64,000 bases of DNA from a virus: positions 1-64,000 of IMG/VR virus record IMGVR_UViG_3300031726_000003, one strand, 5' to 3'. Within the stretch, counting starts at the first letter, position 1. Each line of letters starts with the position of its first letter. Positions 8,721 to 46,132 of the stretch are shown in pieces. The notes under the pieces are model-generated. The model was given only the letters and a program-made list of their open reading frames with translations, was not told where the DNA came from and searched no databases. Made by a program: the position numbers and the translations under genes.

Positions 8721-8725
8721 CGCGC

Positions 8726-17908: not shown

Positions 17909-17910
17909 TA

Positions 17911-20761: not shown

Positions 20762-20928
20762 TGCTCCGGGCACAGATCAACTTCCTGTCTACGATCACCG
20801 GCACTGGGTGGATGTATATAGACGCCGTTAGCCGCGAGGTGGTCAAGGTCACTGACCCCGACGGAGTCGAGGTGTCCAGCGAAGTTCCGTACTCCTACGA
20901 ATGCGTGGGTGAATGGGAAGATGCTTGA
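20761..20928 (+). CDS. 55-residue beta-type protein
   Basis: A short frame from ATG 20761 to TGA 20928. Its start overlaps the preceding TAA and its end overlaps the first glycine-rich gene's start, so it is translationally coupled on both sides. The product begins MLRAQINFLSTITG and continues with alternating strands (WMYIDAVSREVVKVTDPDG, VPYSYECVGEWED). It looks like a small beta-barrel or adaptor domain. It may link the glycine-rich proteins to the virion, but that is inference. Confidence 0.55.
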   Translation: MLRAQINFLSTITGTGWMYIDAVSREVVKVTDPDGVEVSSEVPYSYECVGEWEDA

Positions 20929-21856: not shown

Positions 21857-21860
21857 CAAT

Positions 21861-22811: not shown

Positions 22812-22823
22812 CTAGGGTCCATC

Positions 22824-23790: not shown

Positions 23791-25053
23791 ATGCTAGGTT
23801 TCAACCCGATAGCAGCGTTACCTATAGCGACAGCACCTTCGGCGTCGGGGCCGAGCACGCAGACTCTTACGCAGTCTGCGATATTCGCGAACAGCAGTAC
23901 GTTTTACACCCACGCGTTAGCTGGGTCGGCGCAGACGCTCACACAATCTGCCATCCATGCGAACAGCAGCACGTTCTACACACACCTGTTAACTCCGGGC
24001 GTCCGTACACTTACTCAATCTGCAATCTTCGGCAATGCGCAGACGTACTATACGCACGCGCTGGCGACGACCTCCTCCCTCACTGCGTCTACGATGTTCG
24101 CCAACGCGCAGACATATTACACGCATGTATTGAGCCAAGTAGGAGCGCAGACGCTCACACAGACGTCGACATTCACGGCCAGCCAGTCATACTACACGCA
24201 TGTATTGTTGGCTACCGTCGCTATGCCGCAGTCGGCCATATTTGCGAACAGCAATACATTCTACACGCACGTGCTGGGCGTGGTCAGTCAGCTAACACAG
24301 TCTTCGATGTTCGCGAACAGCAACACGTTTTACACGCACGCGCTATCGGTAGGGGCGGTGACGCTCACTCCGACTTCGATGTTTGCCAACGCGCAGACAT
24401 ACTATACGCACGTGCTGTCTCTGCTCGGAGGGCCGCAGACGCTCACTTCGACGACTATGTTTGCGAACGCGCAGTCGTTCTATACCCAGACTATAAGCAC
24501 GACTCTTACGCTCACTCCGACGACTATGTTTGCGAACGCGCAGACGTATTACACGCATGTGCTGATACCGCCGCCTAGAACTCTTACACAGTCCGCTATC
24601 TTTGCGAACACGCAGACGTTCTACACTCACGCGCTATCTGTCGGGGCCGCGTCGCTCACGCAGTCTTCGCTATTCGCGAACAGCAACACGTTCTACACGC
24701 ACGTTATTGGGACGTCGGGGGCAGCGCAGACACTTACGCAATCTGCGCGGTTCAATAGCTCCAACACGCTGAACTACCAGCATGTGCTGCAAGCCTCCAA
24801 TGCGCTCGTCCAGTCAGCCATATACGCGAATGGCAACACGTTCTACACGCATTCACTGACCGTCGCTGCGGCTACGCTCGTGCAGTCGAGCAGGTTTAGC
24901 AACGTCAATGATTTCTACGTGCACGTTATTGGTGGGGGGATCATAAGCCATGTTTATGTGCCGCCGTCGATTGTGCTCACCACCACTCATAAAACCGCCG
25001 TACTTGCGAGCCGCATGAGCAGGATAGATGTCTTGCCGAACGACCTGTTCTGA
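23791..25053 (+). CDS. Repeat protein with ~15 FANxxTFYTH units
   Basis: A 420-residue protein made of about fifteen 22-26 residue repeats of the pattern TLTQSxxFANxxTFYTHxL (residues about 24-365). A short N-terminal leader begins MLGFNPIAALPI. The C-terminal 45 residues read SHVYVPPSIVLTTTHKTAVLAS and resemble the end of the 1418-residue protein (TTTNRTDVFVAS). The regular beta-strand repeat suggests a long beta-solenoid or stalk. It follows the glycine-rich copies and likely forms part of the same adhesin complex. The family name is not known to me; similar tandem units occur in phage fibre regions. Confidence 0.75.
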   Translation: MLGFNPIAALPIATAPSASGPSTQTLTQSAIFANSSTFYTHALAGSAQTLTQSAIHANSSTFYTHLLTPGVRTLTQSAIFGNAQTYYTHALATTSSLTASTMFANAQTYYTHVLSQVGAQTLTQTSTFTASQSYYTHVLLATVAMPQSAIFANSNTFYTHVLGVVSQLTQSSMFANSNTFYTHALSVGAVTLTPTSMFANAQTYYTHVLSLLGGPQTLTSTTMFANAQSFYTQTISTTLTLTPTTMFANAQTYYTHVLIPPPRTLTQSAIFANTQTFYTHALSVGAASLTQSSLFANSNTFYTHVIGTSGAAQTLTQSARFNSSNTLNYQHVLQASNALVQSAIYANGNTFYTHSLTVAAATLVQSSRFSNVNDFYVHVIGGGIISHVYVPPSIVLTTTHKTAVLASRMSRIDVLPNDLF

Positions 25054-26206: not shown

Positions 26207-29200
26207 ATGGCCGCGTTTCTTCTAGCGTCGTCAGTACGCGCTGCAAGCACCGCCTCGGTAACTAGACTCACGCAGTCTCAGCCGAGGCTCGCTGCGTCTG
26301 TTGTCTGCATCCCATCCGCTTCATACGCCCAGCCGGGAGCTATCTCGGCTGCGGTCACGTGTGTCTGCACGGCGGGGACTTATAACGCGGTTAGTTGGAC
26401 CACATTCGAGGATGTTAACGTACTACCATCGGTCATAGGGAATGGATACGAGGTAAGGCTCAACTACTTCGGCGGTACTCGATACATGGAGTACAGAGCT
26501 ATCGGGGGTACAACATGGACGGCGGCTACCGTCGTATGCGATACGGTGCTGTTCTTCAAAGGGATGTTCGTATTACTCAGGGTATACGACTATTGGGACT
26601 TTGCGCTTAACGCATATAGGTACGGGCTGATGTCGTGGACATCTGCAAGTACGCCTGCTGAGTTTACGTCCCCCGCACGAGCATATACCGGGCGCGAATT
26701 CAACGGGGGCAATGCGTTCTCTTATTTTACAGATGCCGCCGTGCTCGGCGGAGAGATGGTGGTCATGTCCGGGCGCTCGGTGGCGCGTAGCAGTGATGGC
26801 ATGAACTGGACGCAGTACATGGTGCCGGCTACTGGCAACAGCTATCTGACCGCTAATCGTCAGCGGTTGTTCACAGATGCGTTATGGGGGCACTCGCTGA
26901 CAGGGGCCGCTAGGGCGTTGGTCTCCGCGAACAGGGGGTCATCGTGGACTGAGATCACACTCCCAACTGGAGATTCCGTGATTGACTACGCCGCGAACGG
27001 CACGCACGCTGTGTACATTGTGCTCAACGCTGGGGCATCGTATGTCAGGGTCACGACGGATAGAGGAGCGACGTGGACGTCGTCACAGGTACCGAACTCA
27101 TCTACGTACTGGTACAACGGCGGATCGTACGCGGGCATAGACGACAAAGGGCGAGTATACACACTGTGGAGTGACCAGTACGACGACGCTCAGGTCGCGC
27201 TGTATTACTCAGACGACTATACGAATTGGACGAACATCCCGATCGGCATAACCGGGGTCAATGTAGTACCGGGGCAGGGGGTCATGTTCTTTAACGGGGC
27301 TAACGTCGTCATAGCGTATCGGGGGGGTATGAAATGTCGACTGGATGTGGGTACCGTTACAGCGACAGCAGCTCTCACCACGAAGGATTACAGGCTGGAC
27401 GCGGCGGCGGTATGTGTGTGCTCTACTGTATACGGCGGAGCTACTAGGGTAAGTGCGATACCCCCCGCTTACGGCGATACATATTCCCCTTCAGACCTTC
27501 TCCCAGACGGGTCAATGCATTCTACCTCGCTGCTATCCGAAGGCATAGGTACTACGCCGTTCCGCATATTAAGCGTTGTTAACGACGGGGAGTATGTTAC
27601 CTGCGATCAGGACGGAACAGTGATAAGAACTGACGGGGTAGTAGTGTCGTCCATGCAGCTCCCCCAGATCGGTATTGATGGGTATTCGTACAACATAGAG
27701 TATCTAGTGAAGCTCGGCGATATGCACGTAGCATTTAGCAGATTCAACGTGCTGATCTCCACGGACAACTGTGCTACGTGGACTCACGCAATAGCGCCTA
27801 CGCGTATATACTCCGCCGTATCCACAGGGACGTATTTGGCTATACCGAGCGGCAGTGGGCTTCTCGTGACTACCGACGGGGTTAACTGGACGTCACGATC
27901 AACCCCGTCCAGTGATGGTATTAGTAGCAGACTCGCTGCAACGAAGAATGCACTATTCGTCAGCGACACGGCTCATGTATACAGGTCGTTAGACGGCGGA
28001 GTTACGTGGACGCAGGTGTTCACTGCCAACACGAACCTATTATCTACAGGGCGATCCTACCAAGACATAGTGTTCGCGGGGCCGTCTAACGATAGTTATA
28101 ACTATAGTTACACGTCGATATACTACTCGCTGGACGACGGAACCACCTACACGGAAGTCCGTATGCCATACACGAGTATGGTGCCCCAATTCAGGTCGAT
28201 AGACCGCAGTACCGGGCAGTACATCGCAAAGTCACACGGCGCAGAGGTGTTCACCTTCTCCGGGGCACCGTCGGCAATACAACTTAACACAGCTCCGAAC
28301 AATATTCTAAATGGTAGTGCGATTGTATCTATCGCTGTGTCTGAAGGGGCGAGTACAACCTTTACAGAGCTAACTCCCGGACCATATTACCCCTCGTCAT
28401 CAGCTTACGACGGGGCATATTACTTCCTGATGGAGGCGTCGGATGCGCTGGGCGTCATTCAAGACTGGAGGTCTGTGGATGGCGTAACATGGACTGCCTT
28501 TAGAGCCAGCCGAATGAACTCAGTCGCGATGGGGTTCTTGGGTAACCTGTATGTCATCGAGCACATTGGGAGTACGAATCCAGCCTCGCTAACGGTTTCA
28601 ACGGATCACGGTGTGACGTCTAGCGACGTTACACCGGCAGGCATGGTGATTGGGACTAACCCTTGGCTGAGTATGTACGCGTACGATGACGCGTTATACG
28701 TGTGGGAGTATACCAGCGCCGGGCAGCGTTGGAAGACGACAGACGGTAGTGTATGGACACTTGTGGATTCAGCCAATCCGGGCTTTGCATCTGCGTCAAC
28801 CGTCGTAGTAAGAGGATGCTACTTATACGCTGCGAACCAATCCCGGCCATCCTTTTATGTGAGCGGGGATAACGGAGCATCATGGACAGCGAGTAATCCG
28901 CCGGGCTGGGCTATCTTCGGGGATGATGGAGTAGTGTTAGCCCTCGTCAGTAACAACCCCATATACGTGTACAGAAGTGACGACTACGGGGCACATTTCT
29001 ATCTTGTGTCAACTGTGCCGGGGACCTTTGGATATAGAGGATATGCGGCGGGGGTGTTCGTACTATCTGTGTTGTCAGGTAGCGTTTACTCTATGTACTA
29101 TTCTACCAATAACGGAGATACATGGACGAAGAGGTACAACGGGGGCGAAGCATTGGCAGCTCTGGTGTTCGATCTCGGAGGTAAGTGCTATGCCGTGGGG

Positions 29201-30463
29201 GTACCTACCTACTCACCTAGTCTGTTGATCGACGGCGAGAAGACAAGCATTGCTCTGCTAGAGTTTCACGCATACCTGACGAGCACAGTGACCTGTGTAT
29301 CCTCCGCCAGCGCAACCTTTTCGGATGGGTATGCTAACTGCGTGTGCACGGTGCCGGCAGTAAATCTGCAACTGCCGGTAAAGTTTATCGCGTCTGTGGC
29401 TATCAGCTTCGACGTGTGGGCGTGGCTTAGAACACAGAGCGCGTTGTATGGGAGTGGAGTGGCGTTATCCACAGCAAGTCTGTCGCGCGGGTGGTTCCTG
29501 CACGAGACCCTCACCGCTGTCAGCGCTGCCACAGCCTCCCTCAAGAAGACGCACGATTTAACAGCGCCGATGCTGGTATGCGTGTCATCGATGCGGGATA
29601 ACGCTAGACTGGTGGCGAGCATACAGAACATACCGTTCGTGTGGCCGGCGGCTCTCACCACGAAGGGGCACACTTACCTAGCTGCTGCAGCGCAAGGCGT
29701 CTCTACTGCCAGTGCTCCGCTCGCGTTCCACACCACGCTTATAGCGGACGACGTGTGCTATGACGGCGCGTGGATAGTGGGGGCAACTCTCACTGCTCGT
29801 ATAGCTCTTGCGAGTACAGCGTCTTGTACACAGGCGATAAGCACGCCCAGCCTACTGACCGCAATACAGCTAGAAGGCACGGCCATCGCGGCTTCTAGCG
29901 GCCCTGCGGCTGCACTTACCTCTGCCATCAGTCTGACAGCGTCCGTGACGGGCGGCGCAATATCTACCGCAATACTCTCGCACGACGAGCTGCGGTCAGC
30001 GCAGGCTGTCGTAACCCTCGCCACCGGCGACCTGACGCACATCATACGACTCAGCGATGTAGCGGTCATGGAATCCGCAGCTACAGGCGAGTTAACCGCA
30101 TATATCAATCTGGCGGCAGTAGCTCAGACGGTAGTGACCGCCAGCGGGGCGGCAGCGGTCAGGTCCACGATGGAGGCTATAGTCAGCGCGAATAGCACGG
30201 CGATGGCTACGCTTCGCGTGATTATCACCCTGCAGGCCGGCTGTGCTGCGGGGGGTACGGCAACCGGCGATCTCAGCAGCGCGGTGCGTCTGTCCGGCAC
30301 CGCGCTTGTGTATGCAAGTGTGCTCGAAGCGCTGATTGCTACACATTACCCCGACGAGGCGGTCTATAAGTCATACGTCAGTGTGCTGCTCACACCGTCT
30401 AACACGGTGTACACTACCACGAACAGAACCGACGTATTTGTCGCATCAAAGAAGGCAGCATAG
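26207..30463 (+). CDS. 1418-residue Asp-box (BNR-like) adhesin
   Basis: A large virion protein. Residues about 180-1020 contain roughly fourteen Asp-box-type motifs of the form S-x-D-x-G-x-T-W (for example SSDGMNWTQ, TTDRGATWTS, TTDGVNWTS, SLDGGVTWTQ, SGDNGASWTA). Such motifs are known from sialidases and other beta-propellers. Residues about 1050-1380 are Ala/Thr-rich repeats with ATGELTAYINL and ATGDLSSAVRL units. The end TTTNRTDVFVAS resembles the end of the repeat protein at 23791. This suggests a receptor-binding or glycan-recognising fibre. No catalytic sialidase residues are evident, so binding rather than cleavage is the safer reading. Confidence 0.75.
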   Translation: MAAFLLASSVRAASTASVTRLTQSQPRLAASVVCIPSASYAQPGAISAAVTCVCTAGTYNAVSWTTFEDVNVLPSVIGNGYEVRLNYFGGTRYMEYRAIGGTTWTAATVVCDTVLFFKGMFVLLRVYDYWDFALNAYRYGLMSWTSASTPAEFTSPARAYTGREFNGGNAFSYFTDAAVLGGEMVVMSGRSVARSSDGMNWTQYMVPATGNSYLTANRQRLFTDALWGHSLTGAARALVSANRGSSWTEITLPTGDSVIDYAANGTHAVYIVLNAGASYVRVTTDRGATWTSSQVPNSSTYWYNGGSYAGIDDKGRVYTLWSDQYDDAQVALYYSDDYTNWTNIPIGITGVNVVPGQGVMFFNGANVVIAYRGGMKCRLDVGTVTATAALTTKDYRLDAAAVCVCSTVYGGATRVSAIPPAYGDTYSPSDLLPDGSMHSTSLLSEGIGTTPFRILSVVNDGEYVTCDQDGTVIRTDGVVVSSMQLPQIGIDGYSYNIEYLVKLGDMHVAFSRFNVLISTDNCATWTHAIAPTRIYSAVSTGTYLAIPSGSGLLVTTDGVNWTSRSTPSSDGISSRLAATKNALFVSDTAHVYRSLDGGVTWTQVFTANTNLLSTGRSYQDIVFAGPSNDSYNYSYTSIYYSLDDGTTYTEVRMPYTSMVPQFRSIDRSTGQYIAKSHGAEVFTFSGAPSAIQLNTAPNNILNGSAIVSIAVSEGASTTFTELTPGPYYPSSSAYDGAYYFLMEASDALGVIQDWRSVDGVTWTAFRASRMNSVAMGFLGNLYVIEHIGSTNPASLTVSTDHGVTSSDVTPAGMVIGTNPWLSMYAYDDALYVWEYTSAGQRWKTTDGSVWTLVDSANPGFASASTVVVRGCYLYAANQSRPSFYVSGDNGASWTASNPPGWAIFGDDGVVLALVSNNPIYVYRSDDYGAHFYLVSTVPGTFGYRGYAAGVFVLSVLSGSVYSMYYSTNNGDTWTKRYNGGEALAALVFDLGGKCYAVGVPTYSPSLLIDGEKTSIALLEFHAYLTSTVTCVSSASATFSDGYANCVCTVPAVNLQLPVKFIASVAISFDVWAWLRTQSALYGSGVALSTASLSRGWFLHETLTAVSAATASLKKTHDLTAPMLVCVSSMRDNARLVASIQNIPFVWPAALTTKGHTYLAAAAQGVSTASAPLAFHTTLIADDVCYDGAWIVGATLTARIALASTASCTQAISTPSLLTAIQLEGTAIAASSGPAAALTSAISLTASVTGGAISTAILSHDELRSAQAVVTLATGDLTHIIRLSDVAVMESAATGELTAYINLAAVAQTVVTASGAAAVRSTMEAIVSANSTAMATLRVIITLQAGCAAGGTATGDLSSAVRLSGTALVYASVLEALIATHYPDEAVYKSYVSVLLTPSNTVYTTTNRTDVFVASKKAA

Positions 30464-33465: not shown

Positions 33466-35259
33466 ATGGCTACATCAGCAGCGTTTGACTCGGCTATAGC
33501 GACGCTTCAGGACGCATCATCTGCGTTCGCGAGCAGCATGAACCAGTATGCCGACATGTCGCAGAATGGCGGCATCGAGATGGCGAACATTAACATCGCT
33601 ACCGGTGGCATCTACTATAACGGCGTAGTCAACCCGGCTAATATCACTATGAGTGATGTGGTGTTCAACGGGCGGACGCTTCCCACCGTTAATATGCCGA
33701 CTATCACGATGGGGGATACTGGCGTCGCCCCGACCTTCTCCGCTACCACTCCTCTGGTGAATATCCCGGTTGTGCCTGCGCTGGTGATACCGGACGTTAA
33801 TACCACCCCGCCGACATTCAATATGCCGACGCTTCCCGACACTCCGCAGTTCACCTACCCGGCGGTGCCGACTATCAGTGAAGTGGCGATGCCGGCAGCA
33901 CCGGCGATAAATCTGCCGGTGTTCGACAGCACATTCATTGATTACGACCTGACGAACACTGTCGGCGATTTCGATTGGGCGGAGGCTCCGTTTCAAGACG
34001 CACTGATGGACGAGCTGAAGTCCAAGCTGATGGCTGACCTTATAAACGGCGGCTATGGTATCGAGCCTGCCGATGAAGAAGGATTGTGGATGCGTGCCGT
34101 TGATCGTGAGGTACGCAACTCCGAGCGCGCTATTCAGGAGGCCAACCGCGCCGCTGCAGCGCGCGGGTTCAGCCTACCCCCCGGTGCTCTGTTCGCGCAG
34201 ATGGAGTCCGTACGGCAGGATACGATGGAGAAGAACAGTAGCGTGCAGCGAGACATAGCACTCAAGCGCGCTGACTTGTACGTACAGAACAGACAGTTCA
34301 CCATCCAAGAGACACGTCAGGTAGAGCAGATGCTGCTCAACTACTGGGCCGGTGTACAGGAGCGTGCGTTGCAAGCGGCCAAGGCACTTGTAGAGCTTGG
34401 CGTGATAGCGTTCAACTCCCGGATTGCCAGACTGAATTATTTCCTCGAGCAGTACAAGATAAAAGCGATGGTGTACGAAACTACGCTACGCGCCGCACTT
34501 GCGAATCTTGAAGTCTACAAGGCTGAGATGGAGGGTGTAAAAGTCTCTGTCGAGGTACAGCGCAGTCGTGTTGATCTATACGTCGCGCAGTTACAGGGTA
34601 TCAAGACTTCAGCCGATATCTACCGTACCGAGATGGAGGCGTCACAGATACAGGCACACATAGAGGAGATCAAGCTGAACGCTTTCCGTGTGGGCATCGA
34701 GGGGTTCAAGGCGCTGGTAGATGCGAAAGTGTCTGTATATACAGCCTACCGCGCGCAGATCGAAGGGGAGATGGCAAAGGTCAATCTGTATACCGCACAG
34801 GTGCATGCATATTCCTCCGAGGTTGAAGCGTACAAGGGCAAGATACAGGCGGCAGTTGCCAACGTACAAGGGCAGTCTGTTGTTGCTGACGTCCAGATCA
34901 AGAATCTGGAAGCTAATGCAAACGCGTATACTGCGGAAGCACATGCGTACAGCGCGCGTGTGACTGCCCTGTCTGAAGCCGCGCGTGTGAAGGTGGAGTC
35001 ATACAAAGCCACTACTTCTGCCCAACTGGACAATGCGCGGGTAGCGGTGTCGGCATGGGAGGCAACAGCGCACACCCACATGGCGGCGGCAGGCATCGTG
35101 GGCAACGTGGCTATGCAGAACGCGTCGATGGCTAACGCACGTGCCACTGCTGCTGCCAGTACAGCGGCATCTATCGCCGGTACGTACGCGGCGGCTATGG
35201 GTTCTGCAGTCAGCGGAATCAGTGCGCTGGAAGCTGACATCACGTCATCTAACGGTTAA
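33466..35259 (+). CDS. Helical fibre-like virion protein (597 aa)
   Basis: The first 150 residues are beta-rich and Pro/Thr-rich (NMPTITMGDTGVAP, PTFNMPTLPDTP). A helical body runs from about 175 to 530, with repeating YxAxVxAYxxxVEAYK-type units (VHAYSSEVEAYKGKIQAAV, YTAEAHAYSARVTAL). The C-terminus is Ala/Ser/Gly-rich. This is an elongated fibre or needle-like architecture seen in phage structural proteins. It lies directly before the two internal-type proteins. Whether it is a tail needle, a fibre or an internal stack cannot be decided from sequence alone. Confidence 0.65.
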   Translation: MATSAAFDSAIATLQDASSAFASSMNQYADMSQNGGIEMANINIATGGIYYNGVVNPANITMSDVVFNGRTLPTVNMPTITMGDTGVAPTFSATTPLVNIPVVPALVIPDVNTTPPTFNMPTLPDTPQFTYPAVPTISEVAMPAAPAINLPVFDSTFIDYDLTNTVGDFDWAEAPFQDALMDELKSKLMADLINGGYGIEPADEEGLWMRAVDREVRNSERAIQEANRAAAARGFSLPPGALFAQMESVRQDTMEKNSSVQRDIALKRADLYVQNRQFTIQETRQVEQMLLNYWAGVQERALQAAKALVELGVIAFNSRIARLNYFLEQYKIKAMVYETTLRAALANLEVYKAEMEGVKVSVEVQRSRVDLYVAQLQGIKTSADIYRTEMEASQIQAHIEEIKLNAFRVGIEGFKALVDAKVSVYTAYRAQIEGEMAKVNLYTAQVHAYSSEVEAYKGKIQAAVANVQGQSVVADVQIKNLEANANAYTAEAHAYSARVTALSEAARVKVESYKATTSAQLDNARVAVSAWEATAHTHMAAAGIVGNVAMQNASMANARATAAASTAASIAGTYAAAMGSAVSGISALEADITSSNG

Positions 35260-35275
35260 TGGACGGAGTCTTATC

Positions 35276-37810
35276 ATGAAAGAGACACAGATTTTACGGG
35301 GACTCGCCAAAGCGAAGGCGGCGTACAAGGCTAACAAATTTGCGAGTGGGTATGTACCACCGCAGCTTGCTAACTCCGAGGGGTTTCAGAATCTGGAGCG
35401 GGCCGGGCTGACAGAGAAGCTGCCCACCATCCGAATCCCACAACCACAGCCCGCTGCTCCTGTCGTACAACCCGGTGCAGCGGCTGCACAGCGCACGGCG
35501 GGCATGGCTCGATCAGCTCAGATGGGCGGGCGTGCTCTGGGTCTCGGCGCAGCTATGATGGGGTACTCACCTGACATCGAGAGCGGTATGTTCCCTGCGA
35601 ATCAGCCTCGTCCAGACCCGCTGCCAGCATTCAATAACCCCGCTCAGCCTAGTCCTGTCAGTATGGCGCGAGGCGGTATGGTGCACGGCGCTGGTACTCA
35701 TACCTCGGATAGCGTACCTGCCATGTTGTCTCAAGGCGAGGCTGTGCTACCAGCTAAGACCGTAGCTGCTGCCGGCGGCTCGAAGAGCATCCAGCGACTT
35801 ATCGAACAGACCACGCACCACGAGCCGAAGCGCACGTTGAGGGGCGGTATGCACGCTGCAGTTGGAGCGGTGGATGACCGCCCTGACTTCCGCCCTATCT
35901 CGCTCGCACAGAACGGTATGCAGACAGCTCCTGTAGCTGCTCCTGTAGCCTCCCCTGCCCCTGCACCGAACTTCACTCCTGCGCCCGGCGCAGGCAGCAC
36001 CGGTACATCCGGTGGCTACACCCCGCCTGTACCTACGAATCCAGAGGGCGACCTCATCGGCCTAGCAGCGGCGAACAATGCAGTTGCCAATAAACAGGCA
36101 CGAGTTGCGCCGCCTGAACCACCGGCACGACCACCGTCACGAGTCGCTGCTGCGGTACAGCGGACCGGCGGACTGGTAGACAAGGTTAAAGATGCTGTGC
36201 TAGGGACACGTGTTGCACCGGTCACTCCACCTGTCGTGCACGCGGCTACAGGGGCTGCGAACGGGTTGGAGCTGGCGCCCAAGGACGGCGCGGTATCTGA
36301 CGCAGCATCGCGTACAGCCGAAGTGGCTCCGGGGAAGACCTCTCCGTCGTTCATGCAGCGGGCCGTTGCGAACATGCCCGGCGCCGACGTGGGAGAGGGG
36401 GCGTTAAAAGCGGGGGCGCGCACGTTAGGCAGCGCCGTGAGATTAACAGGCCGTGTAGCAGCACCGGTTGCTGCGGCTATGTCGCTGAATAAAGTAGGCG
36501 GTGTGGCTCTAGACCCGAGTAAGACGATGGGCGAGAAAGTCGGCGCGGCTGCTGAAGAAGGTCTCGGCAGATGGGCACCAGCCGCTGCGCTCGGCGGAGT
36601 AGGTGCAGAACTAGGGCTGGCGGGAGGACCGGTAGGTTCCGCTATAGGTGGGCTGGCTGGCGGCGCGCTTGGGTACTTCGCTGGTGATAAGGCGCTTCAG
36701 TGGGCGCATGAGCACGGAATCATGGAAGACCCCACCAAGGGATCGAAGACGCTCACCGAGGCTACCGGCATCAACGACGCCGTAGCCAAGATGTATAACG
36801 GAGACAAGACGGCGGCACCTCCTCCTCCTCCTCCTCCGGGAGCTGCAGTGGCTAAAGCCCCTGCTGCTGCTGCTGCTGACAACGACGCCGCAATACAGCA
36901 GGCCAAGCAGCAGACACTGCAAGACCTTCTTCATCAGTTGTCTCAGGTGCACCGCGACCCGAATGTCGATGCGTTCGGGTACGGGCGGGTTAACAACGGC
37001 CCTGACACGCCCATGACAGGGTACGGAGACGGTAGCGGTAACTCGAATTATATGCATCCGAGCCAGTTGGATACGTTCTCGAAGACACGCGATCCTAATC
37101 GTAAGGGCGGGTTATTCGACGGCATGACTGGTATAGGTAGCGCCTTGGCTGAAGCCGCGCAGACGAAATACAACAAGAACCAGAATACGTTGCGCCGTGG
37201 TCAGGATATGAACTACGCCACCACACTGATGCAGCGTGAGATGGCGCAGAAGAGCTATCTCCGTGATCTATACAACGATCAAGCCACGCGCAATCAGGGG
37301 GTGATTGACACCATGTCTGCGATTGGAGCGGATGGCAAACCGATGACCGATACCAAAGGCAATCCGATCAAATCGCCGGCCCGTGCGGCTGACTTGAACC
37401 GGAGCCTTATAGCCGCGCTGGGTAATGCAAAACACCCGATGACTGGACAACCGCTGCGTATCGGCGATCTCGATACCAGTGCGTTGAACCAGTTCTTCGA
37501 CGCCGGTGCTCGTAAGGACTTCTTCGACACTATGAATGAGGGTAAACTCAGAACTATGCTGCGTGCAGTAGGAGCCGACGAACCTGCGTTCAAGAGCGCT
37601 AATCCGTTTGCGCCGGGGTACACTGTTACCGGCACTGCACCGGGGATGTTGGGCCAGCAGCAGCTACGCACCGCAGCGAATGCGCCGGGCAAGACTAGCG
37701 GCATATGGGCGCCGAATCTCACCGGCGGCTCATGGGGCGCCCCATTCAACTGGGATCAGATGGTGGCAGCACAGAACGGACAACGCGTCTGGAATCAAGA
37801 TCAACAGTAG
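35276..37810 (+). CDS. Internal/ejection-type virion protein with glycine zipper
   Basis: The ATG at 35276 (GACGGAG upstream) gives 844 residues beginning MKETQILRGLAKAKAAYKAN. Near residue 125 a THTSDSVPAMLSQGEAVLPA segment matches a motif I know from internal and tape-measure-like phage proteins. Around residues 430-490 a glycine zipper (GGVGAELGLAGGPVGSAIGG) could insert into membranes. A Pro run (seven Pro) lies near 520 and a helical, charged C-terminal third follows. Ahead of the giant protein this resembles a podophage ejection-protein pair that would be injected with the DNA. That role is inference from architecture and location. Confidence 0.65.
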   Translation: MKETQILRGLAKAKAAYKANKFASGYVPPQLANSEGFQNLERAGLTEKLPTIRIPQPQPAAPVVQPGAAAAQRTAGMARSAQMGGRALGLGAAMMGYSPDIESGMFPANQPRPDPLPAFNNPAQPSPVSMARGGMVHGAGTHTSDSVPAMLSQGEAVLPAKTVAAAGGSKSIQRLIEQTTHHEPKRTLRGGMHAAVGAVDDRPDFRPISLAQNGMQTAPVAAPVASPAPAPNFTPAPGAGSTGTSGGYTPPVPTNPEGDLIGLAAANNAVANKQARVAPPEPPARPPSRVAAAVQRTGGLVDKVKDAVLGTRVAPVTPPVVHAATGAANGLELAPKDGAVSDAASRTAEVAPGKTSPSFMQRAVANMPGADVGEGALKAGARTLGSAVRLTGRVAAPVAAAMSLNKVGGVALDPSKTMGEKVGAAAEEGLGRWAPAAALGGVGAELGLAGGPVGSAIGGLAGGALGYFAGDKALQWAHEHGIMEDPTKGSKTLTEATGINDAVAKMYNGDKTAAPPPPPPPGAAVAKAPAAAAADNDAAIQQAKQQTLQDLLHQLSQVHRDPNVDAFGYGRVNNGPDTPMTGYGDGSGNSNYMHPSQLDTFSKTRDPNRKGGLFDGMTGIGSALAEAAQTKYNKNQNTLRRGQDMNYATTLMQREMAQKSYLRDLYNDQATRNQGVIDTMSAIGADGKPMTDTKGNPIKSPARAADLNRSLIAALGNAKHPMTGQPLRIGDLDTSALNQFFDAGARKDFFDTMNEGKLRTMLRAVGADEPAFKSANPFAPGYTVTGTAPGMLGQQQLRTAANAPGKTSGIWAPNLTGGSWGAPFNWDQMVAAQNGQRVWNQDQQ

Positions 37811-37828
37811 CACTTACAGGAGAGACTC

Positions 37829-40800
37829 ATGGCTGGTTTAGCTGACGCGCTCTACGCACAGGCCGGGTATAACAATCCCCCCGCAGGAGGTGACGTCTTA
37901 TATGCCCCGCAGCAGTCTGTTCCTACGCCGGAGATGATGCAGCAGTTCTCTCCGGGGAACTCATTCACACAAGGGCTTGCGCGCGGTGGTCGAGGGCTGC
38001 GGGGGCAGATTGGCGCGCTGGTAGGCACAGGCGCTGAAGCGATGGGGTTCCCGAGCGTAGCGCAGGGAGGATACGACCTAGCTGCGGATATGGCGCACCA
38101 GAACGCGGATGCTGCGCAGACAGACGCGATCCCGACGTGGAAGAACGTGCATGATCTGAAGGGGCTGTCGCAGTTCACTCTGGGCAGCGTAGGGGCAGGA
38201 CTTCCGTACATCGCCCCTGCCGTGCTCGGCCCGATGGGTGCACGTATAGCAGGCGCAGGACTTGAAGGACAGATCGCCGCTGGTACTGCGGCCAATGCAT
38301 TACCGTTCGCTGGCAGTGCTGCTGAGCGGCTGCATGATGATCCAGCTACAGCCTCCATGCCGGCCAGCCATCGGCTAGGTATCGCAGGGACAGAAGGGCT
38401 GGCAGGCGCAGGGCTATACGCCATCCCCGGCGCACTCATGGGCGAGCGGGCTGTCGGCGCCGCTGGCATGGCTGCGAAACCTACACTCAACCCGCTCAAA
38501 TCCGCCGCCGGTATGGCCGGCGACACCGCTGCGTTCATGGGCGGCATGGGCGCTGCTGGTGCCGCCACAGGTCAGCTTGGGCGCACAGTGCAGAGGCAGT
38601 ACGACCCGACATACCTAGAAGGGCAAGACCCGGAGCTGATGAAAGAGGAGTTTGCCGGTAGTGCTGCTGGTATGCTGCCGTTCGCCATTCCGCATGCCAT
38701 CTCCGCTCACACCGCTGGTGCGGCACGTCAGCCGATCCGTGAGTTCGTGAGCGCGGGCGTGAAAAACGTGGGGCGCAAGATATATGACTCCATGCCTGAT
38801 ATGGCGCAGAGCGCACTCGACGTTTTGGTCGCTACAGGCAAGACCACTTCTGATGGGGCCAGACTGCTCAGTGAGTTCAAGGAGCATATCAAAGGCAAGG
38901 CGCGTACTGCACTCGATGCGTACGAGGACAGCCTGAACACCGCGCGTACAGACAACTTCATCACCGGCGAAGAAGGCGGCGTCAACGACCACCTCGGCGC
39001 TGCCGCAGATGCTGTGAAGGCGGCGCTTCCGACAGAGGATGAGGCGGCTGCAACAGGGTTGGCGGCTGGACGCGCGGTACGCAAGGCTGCGGTTGACACA
39101 TGGGGCACGATACGCAAGGCGGTGTTCGGCGAGGGCGTGCCTGAAGCCACCCCGATGAACATCAAGCGCGTGCATGCACGCATCGCTTCGCTGGAGAACG
39201 TCTCTGCTGAAGAAGCCCCCGGCGTGTACTCGAAGCTGGTGGAAAGCCTTGGCGACCACGACTCTCCGGCTGCTGACCGCATACGCACGCTCGCGCAGAA
39301 GCGGCTAAATGACGGCAAGTTATCCGACGAAGAGGTGTATGGAATGTCGAACGACATTCTGGAGGTCGCCGCTGCCAGACGCGCTATACAGCAGGCACGT
39401 GACATCGCATCATCCAAGCCGGATGCAACTGTAGACGAAGAGGGACCAGCGTCTGAGTCGTCCAATTCCATACCGAATAAACTGTTTCGCGATTCGTTCG
39501 CGAAGTGGGGCGTCGACCCTGCGCTGACTAGTGAGCTAGGCAAGTACGTAAATCCGACCACCGTGCATAAATACGGCATTACTGACCTGAACAGGCAGCT
39601 AGTGGCGAAAGCCGCAGAGTTGACCGGCGGCGATGAAGGCCATATGACGGCGGTAACGAAGGCAGTCGAGAGCATGACATCGGAACTGCAGTCGTACCGC
39701 AAAGAGGCGCACCCCGATCTGCCGGATGATCCAATGAAGGTGATGCGTGGTATTGAGTCTGCAGCACGCACGATGGTGAACGCCAGTGACCGCCCTGAGG
39801 CACGCGACCCATCTACTGCGAGGGCTGCCGCTGACACCATGATGGAGATCGTGAATGCGGCTGCGCAAGGGCGGGACGTGCACTATGGCGACGGGAAGAC
39901 GCGCTCGTGGCGCGCATCTGTCGGCAAGTTGACTGACTGGCTGCATGGCGAGTATGGGCAAGCCGGAGCGGAATTCGTGCAGAACGTACTCGCGCACGCA
40001 CGTGAGGCATACGGCGAAAACAGCAAGGTAGTCGGCAGGCTAAAGCTGTTGAACGACACCTCTACTCAGTACGAGTCGTCCCTGCGTGATTTCGGAGAGC
40101 AGTTAAACCGCAAGTACGCAGACCAGAAGGTCAATGTGCGTAACGTGATGAAGCGAATGCTGGGCGATCTACGCACCACCCGCGACATGGCTGAGCCGTC
40201 TACGCTCGCACAGCACAAGGCCACGCTGGACTCAAACATAAAACAGACACGCGCTGCAATCGATTCGATGGAGAACAGCGGCACTATCGACCCGCGAGTG
40301 CAGAAGGACATCGACGCGAAATATGCCGAACTACACAGCTATCTGCGTCAGGCCGATGAACTGGCAGAACAGCGCACATCGCCCGCGAAAGACCCGCAGA
40401 TGGAGCTGCGTCGCCGATGGCTCGGTGAGTTCAAGAACGACAAGGCATATCAGCGCGCGCTGGCTGCGGTGCAGCGCTACGAGCGTAGTGGAGCTGACGC
40501 CGTACCGAAGAAAGAACTCGGTGGGGCACCTACTAGAGCCGCGACGAACGCCGAGGGTGACACAGGCAATCACAACTATTCTGCTGAGCAGAGTACGACG
40601 GAGGGTGCCGAACATCTAGAGGAGGATCAGAAGAAGCTCGTCGCACAGGCTGCGAACGAGAAAGGCACCAACGACACATTCACTCCGTCACAGAACGTGG
40701 GATACCACGGTGTAGAGACCATGCGCGGGCTGCGCGTAGAGGGTAATGATGTACCCACGCCGATCTCCCGCAAGCAGTCCGCCGACTTTGAAAAAGGCGG

Positions 40801-43800
40801 CATGAGGAACAAGACGTACGAGCAGATGCATGCTCTGCATGGGTTCCATACTGCGAGCGAGTGGCGCAACATGAAGAACTGGGCTGAAGAGCGGAGCGCC
40901 TCCACTGGCGAATCTGTGAACAGCTTGCTGAACACCGCGATGGAGAAGGTTATCGCGCACGATGAAGAGCGGCTACAGACTCTGGAGAAGCGTAACGCAT
41001 CGAACGTGGCATCTGAAGATATTGCGTTTCTCCACGCTCGCCGGGAGATGTACGACGACCTGAAGAAGCGTGGCAATGATGCTGGCGGGACGTTCTCCCC
41101 CGGTAAACTGTTCTTCGAGGATAAGATCAACCGGCACTACGGCTTGTACCGCATGGAGGGGGACGAGGGTACTGAATTACACTTCACCCCCGAATCGCTG
41201 CAACGCTTTGCCCCCAAAGAAGGTGTGCTCGGCCCCGAGTCCCCAGATAAATACGCCAACAAGCTGATGGAGCGATTCAAAGGCGTGAAGATGGCCCCGG
41301 AGAAGCGCGGTGAGCTGATCGATAATATCAAACAATCGCTGCTCCCGTTACGGTTTGAGGACGGCAAGACCACACAGTTGGACATCGGACGCCTTGTGGA
41401 GAACGTCCTTGAGCGTCATTGGGTACAGCAGGGTAAGATCATAGGCGTGAAGGAGCGCGAAGGCGCGCTTGAGCATGATCGTACCGGCGTGCCAAAGCAG
41501 AGATATACGTCGGAGGAAGTCCTTCGGGCGTTCTATGAGGTAGTCAATACCATCAAGCTGACGAAGGGTGTGGACAACGAGAGTGCATTCGGTGAGGGCA
41601 AGCCCCTTGAAGGACAGCGGTTGGTGAAGGCAACTCGCACCGGGGCCGCGTTGTTCACGAAGAAAGACACGGCGCGCACTATACGTGAGTTCGATCCGAA
41701 GCTGGTTATCTATCGTAGCAAGCCTACAGTGGTCGATGGGAATGTAACGCAGCGCGTAGTTCGCGCTGGCGACGTGGTAAGTTTCCTCGGTAAGGACTCT
41801 TCTGGCAACGCTATGTACAGCCGGAAAAATATCGACCTGAACAAGGTGCTCGTCGACAGGAAGAAAGAGACGTTCTCCGAGTCGCGTATAACCAAGAGCA
41901 CTGGGTATTCTAAGGACGGCACGTTCATCGGAGTAGGTAAGCCGGACGAACATGCTGCCGTTACTCCGAATACTCACGCCATCGAGGCGGCTAAAAAAGG
42001 AGTGTTGCGCGACTTCACCGCTGGCAAAGATTTAGACTTGCGAGCGGCGCTGAACGAATCGGCAGATATGCACGGCATATCACGCAGTGACATACCAGAC
42101 ATGGACGAGGCGCACGTCGCCGCGTTGATTCGCGACGTGCTTATCAACGTGGCTGACACGGGGCACAAGCACGACCTTATGGCCGACGACATTGGCAAGC
42201 TGCTCGCAGGTACAAAGTTCCCTCGTGGCGACCCGCGCAAAGCGTGGCAGGATGCGGTTGTGTATACGCGCGAGCTGGCCGACGGGACGAAGTTTGACGT
42301 GACGCTGATGGCACTCCTTAAAAAGGCTGACTACGGCGATAGTATGCCGCGCCATAGCATAGAAGCAGCAAAGGCGTTCCATCTACGTAGCCAGATTGAT
42401 CGCATACTTCGCCGTATCGATACTCCTGAGAACGACGAAGGACCGGTAGGGCACGATGTTGAGAAGGTGAAAGCCGACATAGCTACTACGAACTCGGAGA
42501 TTGCCCGGCTCACTGAGCAGCGTAAGACCGCGCCTACCAACGCAGCTCAGATCGGCATACCATCGCGGAAACGGGCAGAATCCAGAGAGCAGATAGATGA
42601 GAAGTTAGCGGGGCTGAAGGCGGACAAGACCAGACTCGAAGGTATCCGCTTCAGCTCTGGCAAGGACGTGGAGGATAATACCGTGCTGGGCCGGTTGCAG
42701 TCGCGGTTAGACCGGGAGACTGGTAATCGAGAGGAATCTGTAAATACAGCCGCGCTGAAGAACGGAATGGACGAGCTGTACAACTTCATGACTGGCAGCG
42801 CGATGCGCGACGCGAAGGACAGCGACGGCAACTACGTGTTGGCCGATCTTCACGATGTGTTGGGCACTGGCAACGAGGTGCCGAAGATGGGGGCTGCAGA
42901 AGCCAAACGCGCACTCGGCGCAGGGGAGAAGTATGCTGGGGTGGATAAGACCGGGCCGAAAATGGCGGACGTTAAAGATTCCGGCAAGATTGGCCCTGCA
43001 ACGGACTGGACCTCGCCGGAGAATCTGCGCAAGCTGTCTACCGGGCTGCGCGCTGTAGAGGATGCATTCAAAGCCGCCCCAGAAGCGAAGATGACCAGCG
43101 AGACACTGAGCACTGTACAACCAGTGCGCGGGCCAAAGGGGTCTACCACCGGCATGATGGAACAGCGCAGAGCGAATATTGCCAGCGCTGCCGCCAAGCA
43201 GAAACAGAAAGAGGTTGCACGTCTGCAGCGCATGGCGCGGGGCGAGATCACACAGACACAGAGTGGGTTCCGTAGCCGCAACAACAAGGTCGGCCCCGCG
43301 TCGAAAGAAGCCGCTGCCAGATTAGCGAAGGCTACGGAGGTAATGAATAATCCGAGGGACTTGAGCGAGCCAGTGCCACAGGCTGTAGAGCATGCGGCTG
43401 ATGCGTCATTTGTCGAAAAGGAACGCGAGAGTACCGCCACAGGCTATAAACAGCCGGGTGTGCTGCACGTGAGTGAGAGCAACTTCTTGGCCCATCTTGA
43501 CCAATACACTCCGGAGCAGGCGGCTAACTGGATCGCATCCAACTCACCACGTAGCCAGACGGACAAGATGGTACTCAAGGACTATGTTAACTCTATCCTT
43601 GACGAGATTCATAGCCGCGATCCAGAGAAGGCGGTCAAGGCGTCATACGAGCTGGTTGATACAGGCGGGTGGAAAGAGCCTGTCTCCAAGGCGGATGATG
43701 CGCCGTTCTCCGAGTCGTCGCGCAAGACAAAGCCGCTCACCAACGAGGAGAAGATTGCGCAGCTAGAGAAGGACTTGACTGAGGGGCTGTCCAAGATATT

Positions 43801-46132
43801 CCCGAAGGAGATCATGAAGGGCGTGAAGCTGGTAGACAAGATCGAAGGCAACGACAAAGCCATTGGCAAACTGGTTGATCAGATCGCGCAGATTCACATA
43901 GGCGCGATGGATAAAGGCGAGGTGCGGTGGCATGAAGGCTGGCATGGGCTTGAGCAGTTTCTGAAGAAGCAGATAGGTGGTACGGAGATTCTCGCCACTG
44001 TGTACAAGCACGTCGGCAGTGAGCGCATGTCGCAATGGTTTGCTGAACAGTATGCGAATGACCCCGGCGCGTTGAAGCAGATGGATAAGCTAGGCGATAG
44101 TGAGAAGGCGGCGTTCGCGTTCCAGAAGATTATGGAGGGCGCAACCCTGCCGGGGTCGCCGGTGGTGCGTGGGTTCTGGAACACGATCAAGTCGTGGATA
44201 CAGAAGCTTGGCAACCTCATCGGTATAGGCAACGAGGGTAAGCACACCCAAGCGTTCTTTGACTATGTGAAGAACAGTAATCTGTTGCGCGACCATGACA
44301 ACCCCGACGCGATGCTTAATGCGCTTCATCGGACAACAATGGACGAATTCGCCAGCGATGTGCGTTCGTTCACAGAACCGCTGCATGGTGGGTTAAGTGC
44401 GCTGCTGGGGCATTCGTCCAACCGCATGCACGACACGGGTATAGCCGCGTACCAGACGATTGCAAACCTGTATGCAGGAGAGTCCGGCAAGGGCGGGTAC
44501 ATATCCAAGCAAAACGCTGCGATCAACCGATTCGGCAATGAACTTGACCGCATAGCAGAGCTGGAAGATAAGGGCGTACAGGGCGCTCGCATTCGTGACC
44601 TACAGGGCAAGCTGAGTGGTTACCTGAACAAGGCCGGGTTCACCAACGGCGAGATAAACCGTATGTACGACGGTATCCTCGCGTTCGACCAAGAGAAGAT
44701 AAATTCCGGCATCAAGGAGTTCATGACCGACGTGGTGAATCACGCTGGTACATCAGGCAAGAATGGGGCTGAGCTTCGCGTTATCGCACAGAATATCGCT
44801 GACACCGGTTTCTTCTACGACCCGATGATCGGGCGCGAGCTGTTCAAAGACCCGAAGGTGGCGGCGAAGTGGACAGTAACAGACCCTACCGAGCGTATGG
44901 CGCGCATGATCTATCAAGGCACCCGCATGGCTGAACGCCGCCGTGCTTTCGGGGCGAACGACGAGAATCTGAAGCTCCTAGTTGAGGCCGGCGACGCAGA
45001 GGCTACCCCAGAGCAGCGGCTGTTCGCGGAGCAGTTCGTTGCCAGCTACGAAGGGAAACTCGGCAACGGCACGATGTCTCCTGCAGCGCGCAAGATGATG
45101 GGCGTACTCATCACAGCAAACAACATCCGCATGTTGCCTATGGCTGTGTTTTCACAGTTGCTCGAGCCTATGCAGCTTGCGTTTCGTAAGAACAGTTTTA
45201 GCGGTACATTCGACGCCATGTGGCGTGGTATATCTGACATGCCCCGCAGCTTTGACTCTATCAATAAACGCTACAAGGACGATCCTTCAGGATACCGTGA
45301 CTACTGGGAGAGAATCTCGGCAGAGATGGGCACCATCGGGTCTGACATAGTAGGCAGTGCGGTTGCGAACATGACCAACGGCATGAACCTTCACGGTATG
45401 ACGAAGCGCATCAACAACATGTTCTTCAAGTACAACCTGATGGAGCAGTGGAACAGGTCAATGCATGTGGCAGCTACAAAGATGGCCGTGGAGTTCCTGC
45501 GCGATCACAGCACGTTACCAGATGGAGCGCAGAGCGAGCGGTTTCTGAAAGAGTTGGGGCTGACGCCGGAGGACATCAAGTTCGACGGCGAGGATCGTAT
45601 AATCGTGAACTCGAAAATCGAGGATGCGGTAAACCAGTTCGTTAACGAAGCGATGGCCCACCCTGATGCTGGCTCGAACCCTATATGGATGAACGACCCT
45701 CGCTTCGCATTGTTGGCGCAGATGAAGCGGTTTACATTCGCTCATTCCCGCTACGTGCTCGAGCGCGGTATTCGCGAGTTCAAACTGGGCAACAAGTTTG
45801 TCATGGCTCCCGCTATACTGTCGGTACCGTGGATGATGACTGCTGACAGTATCCGCGATATGGTTAATCCGACGAGTGACCGCAGCTACATGAAGAACTG
45901 GACATACACCGATCACGTGATACACGGCATCGAGCGTACAGGCAGCTTCGGACGCTGGTCATTCCCGCTGGACGTAGAGAAGAGTATCAGCGCCGGCGGC
46001 AGTGGTATGGAGGGGCTGCTCGGGCCAACTGCCGAGCTGTTCTCGCGCGTAGGGCGTGGCGCGCATGAGGGAAACATGATGGACGCGATGCTGGGCAACC
46101 TGCCCGGTGCACCTTTACTGATGCCTGACTAG
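37829..46132 (+). CDS. Giant internal virion protein with zincin motif
   Basis: A 2767-residue protein with a strong GGAGAG site. Residues 1-290 have Ala/Gly-rich hydrophobic stretches (for example GLPYIAPAVLGPMGARIAGAG) that may enter membranes. A long charged helical region fills 300-1000. Middle segments are hydrophilic and mixed. H2035-E2036-G-W-H2039 (in RWHEGWHGLEQF) is an HExxH zinc-peptidase motif, followed near 2110 by FWNTIKSWIQKLGNLIG. The C-terminal 400 residues (DPRFALLAQMKRFTF near 2623) look like large polyvalent-protein-associated (LPD) domains. It could be an ejection protein that cuts peptidoglycan or host proteins. No RNA polymerase motif was found. Confidence 0.75.
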   Translation: MAGLADALYAQAGYNNPPAGGDVLYAPQQSVPTPEMMQQFSPGNSFTQGLARGGRGLRGQIGALVGTGAEAMGFPSVAQGGYDLAADMAHQNADAAQTDAIPTWKNVHDLKGLSQFTLGSVGAGLPYIAPAVLGPMGARIAGAGLEGQIAAGTAANALPFAGSAAERLHDDPATASMPASHRLGIAGTEGLAGAGLYAIPGALMGERAVGAAGMAAKPTLNPLKSAAGMAGDTAAFMGGMGAAGAATGQLGRTVQRQYDPTYLEGQDPELMKEEFAGSAAGMLPFAIPHAISAHTAGAARQPIREFVSAGVKNVGRKIYDSMPDMAQSALDVLVATGKTTSDGARLLSEFKEHIKGKARTALDAYEDSLNTARTDNFITGEEGGVNDHLGAAADAVKAALPTEDEAAATGLAAGRAVRKAAVDTWGTIRKAVFGEGVPEATPMNIKRVHARIASLENVSAEEAPGVYSKLVESLGDHDSPAADRIRTLAQKRLNDGKLSDEEVYGMSNDILEVAAARRAIQQARDIASSKPDATVDEEGPASESSNSIPNKLFRDSFAKWGVDPALTSELGKYVNPTTVHKYGITDLNRQLVAKAAELTGGDEGHMTAVTKAVESMTSELQSYRKEAHPDLPDDPMKVMRGIESAARTMVNASDRPEARDPSTARAAADTMMEIVNAAAQGRDVHYGDGKTRSWRASVGKLTDWLHGEYGQAGAEFVQNVLAHAREAYGENSKVVGRLKLLNDTSTQYESSLRDFGEQLNRKYADQKVNVRNVMKRMLGDLRTTRDMAEPSTLAQHKATLDSNIKQTRAAIDSMENSGTIDPRVQKDIDAKYAELHSYLRQADELAEQRTSPAKDPQMELRRRWLGEFKNDKAYQRALAAVQRYERSGADAVPKKELGGAPTRAATNAEGDTGNHNYSAEQSTTEGAEHLEEDQKKLVAQAANEKGTNDTFTPSQNVGYHGVETMRGLRVEGNDVPTPISRKQSADFEKGGMRNKTYEQMHALHGFHTASEWRNMKNWAEERSASTGESVNSLLNTAMEKVIAHDEERLQTLEKRNASNVASEDIAFLHARREMYDDLKKRGNDAGGTFSPGKLFFEDKINRHYGLYRMEGDEGTELHFTPESLQRFAPKEGVLGPESPDKYANKLMERFKGVKMAPEKRGELIDNIKQSLLPLRFEDGKTTQLDIGRLVENVLERHWVQQGKIIGVKEREGALEHDRTGVPKQRYTSEEVLRAFYEVVNTIKLTKGVDNESAFGEGKPLEGQRLVKATRTGAALFTKKDTARTIREFDPKLVIYRSKPTVVDGNVTQRVVRAGDVVSFLGKDSSGNAMYSRKNIDLNKVLVDRKKETFSESRITKSTGYSKDGTFIGVGKPDEHAAVTPNTHAIEAAKKGVLRDFTAGKDLDLRAALNESADMHGISRSDIPDMDEAHVAALIRDVLINVADTGHKHDLMADDIGKLLAGTKFPRGDPRKAWQDAVVYTRELADGTKFDVTLMALLKKADYGDSMPRHSIEAAKAFHLRSQIDRILRRIDTPENDEGPVGHDVEKVKADIATTNSEIARLTEQRKTAPTNAAQIGIPSRKRAESREQIDEKLAGLKADKTRLEGIRFSSGKDVEDNTVLGRLQSRLDRETGNREESVNTAALKNGMDELYNFMTGSAMRDAKDSDGNYVLADLHDVLGTGNEVPKMGAAEAKRALGAGEKYAGVDKTGPKMADVKDSGKIGPATDWTSPENLRKLSTGLRAVEDAFKAAPEAKMTSETLSTVQPVRGPKGSTTGMMEQRRANIASAAAKQKQKEVARLQRMARGEITQTQSGFRSRNNKVGPASKEAAARLAKATEVMNNPRDLSEPVPQAVEHAADASFVEKERESTATGYKQPGVLHVSESNFLAHLDQYTPEQAANWIASNSPRSQTDKMVLKDYVNSILDEIHSRDPEKAVKASYELVDTGGWKEPVSKADDAPFSESSRKTKPLTNEEKIAQLEKDLTEGLSKIFPKEIMKGVKLVDKIEGNDKAIGKLVDQIAQIHIGAMDKGEVRWHEGWHGLEQFLKKQIGGTEILATVYKHVGSERMSQWFAEQYANDPGALKQMDKLGDSEKAAFAFQKIMEGATLPGSPVVRGFWNTIKSWIQKLGNLIGIGNEGKHTQAFFDYVKNSNLLRDHDNPDAMLNALHRTTMDEFASDVRSFTEPLHGGLSALLGHSSNRMHDTGIAAYQTIANLYAGESGKGGYISKQNAAINRFGNELDRIAELEDKGVQGARIRDLQGKLSGYLNKAGFTNGEINRMYDGILAFDQEKINSGIKEFMTDVVNHAGTSGKNGAELRVIAQNIADTGFFYDPMIGRELFKDPKVAAKWTVTDPTERMARMIYQGTRMAERRRAFGANDENLKLLVEAGDAEATPEQRLFAEQFVASYEGKLGNGTMSPAARKMMGVLITANNIRMLPMAVFSQLLEPMQLAFRKNSFSGTFDAMWRGISDMPRSFDSINKRYKDDPSGYRDYWERISAEMGTIGSDIVGSAVANMTNGMNLHGMTKRINNMFFKYNLMEQWNRSMHVAATKMAVEFLRDHSTLPDGAQSERFLKELGLTPEDIKFDGEDRIIVNSKIEDAVNQFVNEAMAHPDAGSNPIWMNDPRFALLAQMKRFTFAHSRYVLERGIREFKLGNKFVMAPAILSVPWMMTADSIRDMVNPTSDRSYMKNWTYTDHVIHGIERTGSFGRWSFPLDVEKSISAGGSGMEGLLGPTAELFSRVGRGAHEGNMMDAMLGNLPGAPLLMPD

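What the first reader, a model, noticed from the sequence alone, without database searches (positions are those of the whole stretch)
37829..46132. 2767-residue virion protein with an HEGWH zinc-peptidase motif
A giant, probably internal, protein carries HExxH at residues 2035-2039 plus membrane-like N-terminal stretches and an LPD-like C-terminus. A zincin delivered with the DNA could cleave cell-wall or host proteins at entry, a system that is little studied.
Basis: partly seen in the sequence, partly recalled or inferred. Interest (0 to 1): 0.7.

Follow-up and report, generated by a model that had tools for sequence, protein, structure and literature searches.

The report
Giant phage ejection protein with zincin
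This is a very large protein that a short-tailed phage probably carries inside its head and pushes into the bacterium with its DNA; it contains a real, conserved zinc-protease-type domain, a kind of design already described for other phages but here in an uncatalogued family whose layout suggests how the protease might work.

Summary
The motif is not chance. Relatives recruited by their C-terminal region, not by the motif, carry an HExxH in 61 of 61 distinct long ORFs (expected 0.03 each). Across 45 aligned sequences the only five invariant residues are H2035, E2036, H2039, E2092 and A2095: HExxH plus a third zinc-ligand candidate. A relative's domain is confidently predicted as a minimal zincin, with both motifs in the expected helices; Foldseek's best solved match is a SprT/Spartan-type protease (weak E-value, probability 0.97).

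The layout is informative. The end modules occur without a zincin in ~1,050-aa virion proteins of LUZ24-like phages. Long versions insert a variable, here orphan, region plus a zincin held 726-863 residues from the C-terminus. I prefer an ejection protein whose zincin acts in cis at the cargo/vehicle boundary (about 45%); a host-protein effector is the main rival. The class (polyvalent-protein metallopeptidases, Iyer 2017; N4 vRNAP) is known. The LPD C-terminus and cell-wall cleavage are not supported.

The parts
37829..46132 (+). 2767-aa giant protein gene, last of the internal/ejection-protein cluster
   Evidence: KPP25-family homology; RBS at 37818-37823
37838..39121 (+). constant N-terminal module (residues ~4-431), Ala/Gly-rich, shared with short and long relatives
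   Evidence: HMM and phmmer matches in CRPAP1904, phiA008, Bruynoghevirus, tf, JB8 and clade ii giants; hydropathy
39122..43618 (+). variable 'cargo' region (residues ~432-1930); no relative found in the searches made (phage records, PDB sequences, the extracted family members)
   Evidence: no matches; nothing significant among relatives
43715..44158 (+). zincin-like metallopeptidase domain (residues ~1963-2110)
   Evidence: alignment of 45 sequences; AlphaFold2 model of homologous domain, pLDDT 84.9; Foldseek
43931..43945 (+). HEGWH motif (residues 2035-2039): candidate zinc ligands H2035, H2039 and catalytic E2036
   Evidence: invariant H, E, H in 45 sequences
44102..44104 (+). E2092, candidate third zinc ligand (ExxA), 57 residues after the first His
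   Evidence: invariant in 45 sequences, spacing 53-57 in clade i; lies in the expected second helix of the model
44159..44752 (+). helical linker (residues ~2111-2308) shared also with zincin-less short homologs
   Evidence: zn.hmm 250-386 matches in JB8, BroderSalsa, tf
44753..46123 (+). constant C-terminal helical module (residues ~2309-2765)
   Evidence: phrog_30152 E=1.8e-45; HMM matches in all long and short relatives tested
35276..37810 (+). neighbouring probable internal virion protein, Ala/Gly-rich, with a tape-measure-like motif (longest ORF starts 35141; probable start 35276)
   Evidence: PHROG tape-measure matches, sequence, no Pfam domain
33466..35259 (+). neighbouring late gene of family phrog_10969

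Best explanation
The gene encodes a giant ejection (internal virion) protein of a KPP25-like podovirus. A constant N-terminal module and a constant helical C-terminal module act as the packaging and ejection vehicle. Between them sits a long variable cargo region (unrelated to anything found) followed by a zincin domain at a fixed distance from the C-terminus. The zincin binds zinc through H2035, H2039 and E2092 with E2036 as general base. It most likely acts in cis, cutting or remodelling the polypeptide at the cargo/vehicle boundary when the protein refolds in the host, or during assembly, so that the cargo is freed from the ejection apparatus. Shown by computation: conserved zincin residues, predicted fold in a relative, modular layout, virion-gene context. 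Inferred: presence in the virion, zinc binding, catalysis, and the cis substrate.
For: H, E, H, E, A are the only invariant residues among the window and 44 relatives that share 11-23% identity with it. 61 of 61 distinct long ORFs have an HExxH, against 0.026 expected each; the first 80 loci were recruited by C-terminal patterns, a further 17 by a zincin-region alignment. The model of relative L085 (pLDDT 84.9) has helix, three strands, HExxH helix, then helices with E140 in a later one, which is the core described in PMC5512222. PDB best match is SprT/Spartan 6mdx_A, E=0.027, probability 0.97; viral library hits are KPP25 structural protein and a polyvalent-labelled phage protein at 4.6e-8. 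Six short homologs (1021-1222 aa) have the C-terminal module, four of them also the N-terminal module, and none has HExxH. In clade i HExxH lies 726-863 aa from the C-terminus but 752-2083 aa from the N-terminal end of the ORF, some of these ORFs being cut by contig ends. P1 DdrB is a precedent for processing (PMC5512222).
Against: The zincin fold was predicted on a relative; the window's own model (pLDDT 66) did not form the sheet. The PDB match is weak by E-value. Two near-invariant positions differ in the window (Y to F at 2096, R to K at 2093). N4 vRNAP, of similar layout, is reported as packaged unprocessed. There is no cleavage, zinc or virion data for this phage.
Confidence: 0.5

Rival explanations
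1. Injected effector: the zincin is itself cargo and cleaves one or more host proteins in the cytoplasm or periplasm early in infection, for example a defence, envelope or DNA-bound protein.
For: SprT/Spartan-like best structural match; polyvalent MPTases proposed as possible effectors in PMC5512222; zincin absent from the short vehicle-only homologs, so it is dispensable for delivery.
Against: Fixed spacing to the C-terminal module and universal presence in long forms suggest a role tied to the protein itself rather than to one host target; no substrate known.
Confidence: 0.3
2. Pre-packaging maturation: the zincin trims the protein during head assembly, as proposed for P1 DdrB, so only part of it is in the virion.
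For: P1 DdrB precedent discussed in PMC5512222; tailed phages commonly process internal proteins (general knowledge).
Against: N4 vRNAP reported packaged unprocessed; no data for this family.
Confidence: 0.13
3. The domain is structural: a zinc-binding or zinc-less zincin fold kept for folding or packaging, without proteolysis in the window's phage.
For: N4 C1 domain with HExxH has no reported proteolytic activity in the passages read; window deviates at Y2096F and R2093K.
Against: The catalytic Glu E2036 is retained as strictly as the zinc ligands in all 45 sequences, which a purely structural site would not require.
Confidence: 0.1

Closest known systems
KPP25-type giant virion structural protein (Kochitakasuvirus; phrog_30152)
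   Same: Same gene position, N-terminal module, zincin (HESMH...EERIAY) and C-terminal module; BLAST E about 1e-49 over 1963-2763.
   Different: Only about 23% identity; the window's middle 1,500 residues are unrelated; window has HEGWH and a Phe at the ExxA-Y position.
Polyvalent-protein zincin-like metallopeptidases (MPTase) of Iyer et al. 2017, PMC5512222
   Same: HExxH plus Glu in a later helix, three-stranded core, embedded in giant phage late-gene proteins.
   Different: No LPD, ART, PBECR, helicase or other catalogued partner domain in the window; domain not recognised by Pfam.
N4 virion RNA polymerase gp50 (PMC12633501)
   Same: Layout: membrane-associating N-terminal domain, enzymatic middle, HExxH subdomain C1, large helical C2; ejected into the host.
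   Different: No sequence homology of the C-terminal half by profile comparison; no RNA polymerase recognised in the window protein.
LUZ24/PaP3/tf-type ~1,050-aa virion proteins (tf_51, Bruynoghevirus)
   Same: N- and C-terminal modules.
   Different: No zincin and no cargo insert.
SprT/Spartan (SPRTN) DNA-protein crosslink proteases
   Same: Best solved-structure match to the predicted zincin core.
   Different: Match covers about 96 columns at E=0.027; no sequence relationship shown; function not transferable.
Bcep22-like DarB/LPD38 giants (JC1 gp69, PMC9144972)
   Same: Giant podovirus protein found in virions by mass spectrometry (51 unique peptides); also has HExxH motifs.
   Different: No homology to the window's modules.

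Membership tests
Zincin-like metallopeptidase (gluzincin type) | HExxH motif | tested here: met
   HEGWH 2035-2039; invariant in 45 sequences
Zincin-like metallopeptidase (gluzincin type) | third zinc ligand, Glu in a later helix | tested here: met
   E2092, invariant, spacing 53-57, in a helix of the homologous model; zinc geometry not measurable here (coordinates not available)
Zincin-like metallopeptidase (gluzincin type) | helix, three-stranded sheet, active-site helix, Glu helix | tested here: met
   model of relative L085; for the window's own sequence inconclusive
Zincin-like metallopeptidase (gluzincin type) | zinc binding and proteolysis | not testable with these tools
   needs purified protein
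Polyvalent proteins (Iyer 2017) | giant multidomain phage protein next to virion genes | tested here: met
Polyvalent proteins (Iyer 2017) | two or more unrelated catalogued domains in one polypeptide | tested here: inconclusive
   only the zincin is identifiable in the window; relatives carry SNase or SLOG-like domains
LPD38 / LPD domains | Pfam LPD model match in the C-terminus | tested here: not met
   no match in the window or 39 relatives; own-genome search for LPD38 empty but without a ringing control; hhalign against JC1 gp69 C-terminus negative
N4-like virion RNA polymerase | T7-like RNAP domain | tested here: not met
   no PHROG or Pfam RNAP match in the window
N4-like virion RNA polymerase | homologous C-terminal domain | tested here: not met
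KPP25-type giant virion protein (phrog_30152) | homology over N-terminal, zincin and C-terminal modules | tested here: met
KPP25-type giant virion protein (phrog_30152) | presence in virions | not testable with these tools
   annotation only

The most novel reading that the evidence does not exclude
A modular injection vehicle: podoviruses reuse one pair of end modules to deliver interchangeable protein cargo, and a zincin locked to the C-terminal module frees the cargo by cutting in cis on entry. The two zincin subclasses in sister clades (HESLH...EERxAY and AHELGH...FEEWYAD) would then be separate recruitments of the same trick.
Probability: 0.3. Interest if true: 0.75.

Novelty: new member of a known kind. 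Interest (0 to 1): 0.45.

Why it matters
How phages push proteins hundreds of kilodaltons in size through a narrow tail, and what happens to them inside, is an open question. This family offers a clean comparison that can be tested directly: short vehicle-only homologs without a zincin, and long cargo-bearing homologs that always have one. The class of virion zincins was proposed in 2017, and I found no report of a direct activity test for a phage ejection protein in the papers searched.

Tried and rejected
Pfam and NCBIfam gave nothing useful for the protein. Searches of viral contigs with the whole protein or its C-terminal third alone failed; it worked only after an alignment with KPP25 and phiA008 was used. 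The AlphaFold2 model of window residues 1925-2767 was poor and had no PDB match, so the zincin was modelled on a relative. Homology to N4 vRNAP C-terminus was tested and rejected. Homology to LPD38 was tested and rejected. A PHROG 'virion RNA polymerase' match in one relative (7.6e-5) was not traced further. Weak Pfam hits in relatives (TipAS, VipA, Tox-MPTase2) were treated as chance. The gene split in Roseobacter phage CRP-810 between the zincin part and the C-terminal module looked like natural support for processing, but it is caused by a perfect 31-nt tandem duplication and may be an artefact or recent mutation, so it is not counted. Whether the clade i and clade ii zincins are independent insertions is unresolved: spacing differs, but no tree was made. 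A wrong frame was first taken for L090 and corrected.

Full report
Observation. The ORF at 37829-46132 is real: ATG to stop, 2767 codons, with a ribosome-binding site 37818-37823. HEGWH is at residues 2035-2039 and is the only HExxH. From composition 0.10 such motifs are expected in this protein, so the motif alone would be unconvincing.

Setting. The record is a 68,479-base virus. The + strand carries terminase, P22-type portal, major head protein and a head-closure protein, then the genes in question; the - strand carries DNA polymerase, helicase and primase. The giant gene follows two other probable internal-protein genes (33466-35259, phrog_10969; 35276-37810, Ala/Gly-rich with a tape-measure-like motif). 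An M15-type peptidase typical of endolysins is separate, at 17866-18348.

Relatives. The protein is a member of the KPP25 giant structural protein family: phrog_30152 at 1.8e-45, KPP25, phiR18, CRPAP1904 and YMC17. Two direct searches of viral contigs failed, but an alignment-based search using conserved C-terminal peptides found 215 relatives, 80 kept. These were chosen without reference to HExxH. Together with 17 loci found later through the zincin region, 61 of 61 distinct long ORFs (1537-2890 aa) carry HExxH upstream of the C-terminal region; 0.026 are expected per ORF. In the first set alone, every ORF long enough to reach the zincin region has the motif.

Zinc site. A further search gave zincin regions for an alignment of 45 sequences, the window included. 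Only five columns are invariant: H2035, E2036, H2039, E2092 and A2095 in window numbering. Part of this set was recruited by patterns that include the motif itself, so the invariance there is partly by selection; the 23-row alignment A3, mostly from the other searches, shows the same invariant H, E, H, E, A. This is HExxH plus ExxA, the pattern of a gluzincin; the spacing from the first His to the Glu is 53-57 in this clade and 57 in the window. A second clade has AHELGHALF...FEEWYAD instead, with some members recognised by Pfam as M78 or M48.

Fold. AlphaFold2 on relative L085 with the 45-row alignment (window included) gave mean pLDDT 84.9 and about 91-97 through the core: helix 34-48, strands 49-54, 60-65 and 68-74, helix 80-98 holding H86, E87 and H90, and helix 138-151 holding E140. 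This is the core described for polyvalent metallopeptidases in PMC5512222. Foldseek's top solved match is SprT/Spartan 6mdx_A (E=0.027, probability 0.97), with MATCAP and BlaR1 lower among many chance matches; in the viral library KPP25 and a polyvalent-labelled protein lead at 4.6e-8, followed further down by SprT-like and IrrE-like proteins. The window's own long fragment modelled poorly (pLDDT 66), so the fold is inferred for the window by homology. The window has Phe and Lys where most relatives have Tyr and Arg next to the Glu.

Architecture. HMMs of the N-terminal module, zincin region and C-terminal module were run against short and long relatives (with the window and clade i in the training set). 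Six short proteins (tf_51 1021, BroderSalsa 1039, JB8 1043, Vibrio 284E43-1 1049, Bruynoghevirus 1056, Slicky01 1222 aa) have the C-terminal module, four of them the N-terminal one, and none has HExxH. The long forms therefore look like the short form with an insert between the two modules. Within clade i the HExxH is 726-863 residues from the C-terminus (window 733) while its distance from the N-terminal end of the ORF varies from 752 to 2083, some of these ORFs being cut at contig ends. The window's own middle region, 432-1930, matched nothing in phage records, PDB sequences or the extracted relatives.

Mechanism. The virion role is inferred from gene position and annotated homologs. N4 vRNAP gives the clearest analogue: an ejected giant with a membrane-associating N-terminal domain, an enzyme, an HExxH subdomain and a large helical C-terminal subdomain (PMC12633501), but there is no detectable homology, so at most it works like it. 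Because the zincin is tied to the C-terminal module, appears only with cargo, and sits at the cargo/vehicle boundary, I prefer action in cis. The polyvalent-protein paper proposes the same for the class, along with an effector role. N4 being packaged unprocessed argues that any cleavage would come after entry. I put cis action at about 45%, effector 30%, pre-packaging maturation 13%, structural 10%; the confidence given for the best explanation (0.5) mixes a high confidence in the domain itself (about 0.88) with this modest one in its mode of action.

Novelty. The kind is known (PMC5512222); the particular domain and its C-terminal module are not in Pfam, and the vehicle/cargo layout of this family was not found described in the papers searched. 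New member of a known kind.

Noticed in passing
window 23791-25053: Protein with 14 imperfect copies of a ~24-residue repeat (about 72-nt spacing), between Gly-rich proteins and late virion genes.
   Followed up: partly
window 20909-23783: Three consecutive similar Gly-rich ORFs (315, 316, 319 aa) that look like a tandem family of tail or appendage proteins.
   Followed up: no
window 26207-30463: 1418-aa protein with a Sortilin/Vps10-like beta-propeller match (Pfam 5.4e-11), perhaps a sialidase-like propeller of a tail protein.
   Followed up: no
L003:4066-10218 (Aeromonas phage phiA008): The homologous giant carries an N-terminal staphylococcal-nuclease-like domain (Pfam 7.9e-7) ahead of the constant module, an example of possible cargo.
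   Followed up: no
L088:3-6458: A relative with a second HExxH (NTLVHEGVHAATG, residue 1042) upstream of the family zincin.
   Followed up: no
L184 2568-2629 (Roseobacter phage CRP-810): A perfect 31-nt tandem duplication lies where the giant is split into two ORFs, between zincin part and C-terminal module; real split or artefact unknown.
   Followed up: partly
window 8597-10951: 784-aa ORF with no PHROG or Pfam match, overlapping the end of the terminase gene; true start probably later.
   Followed up: no
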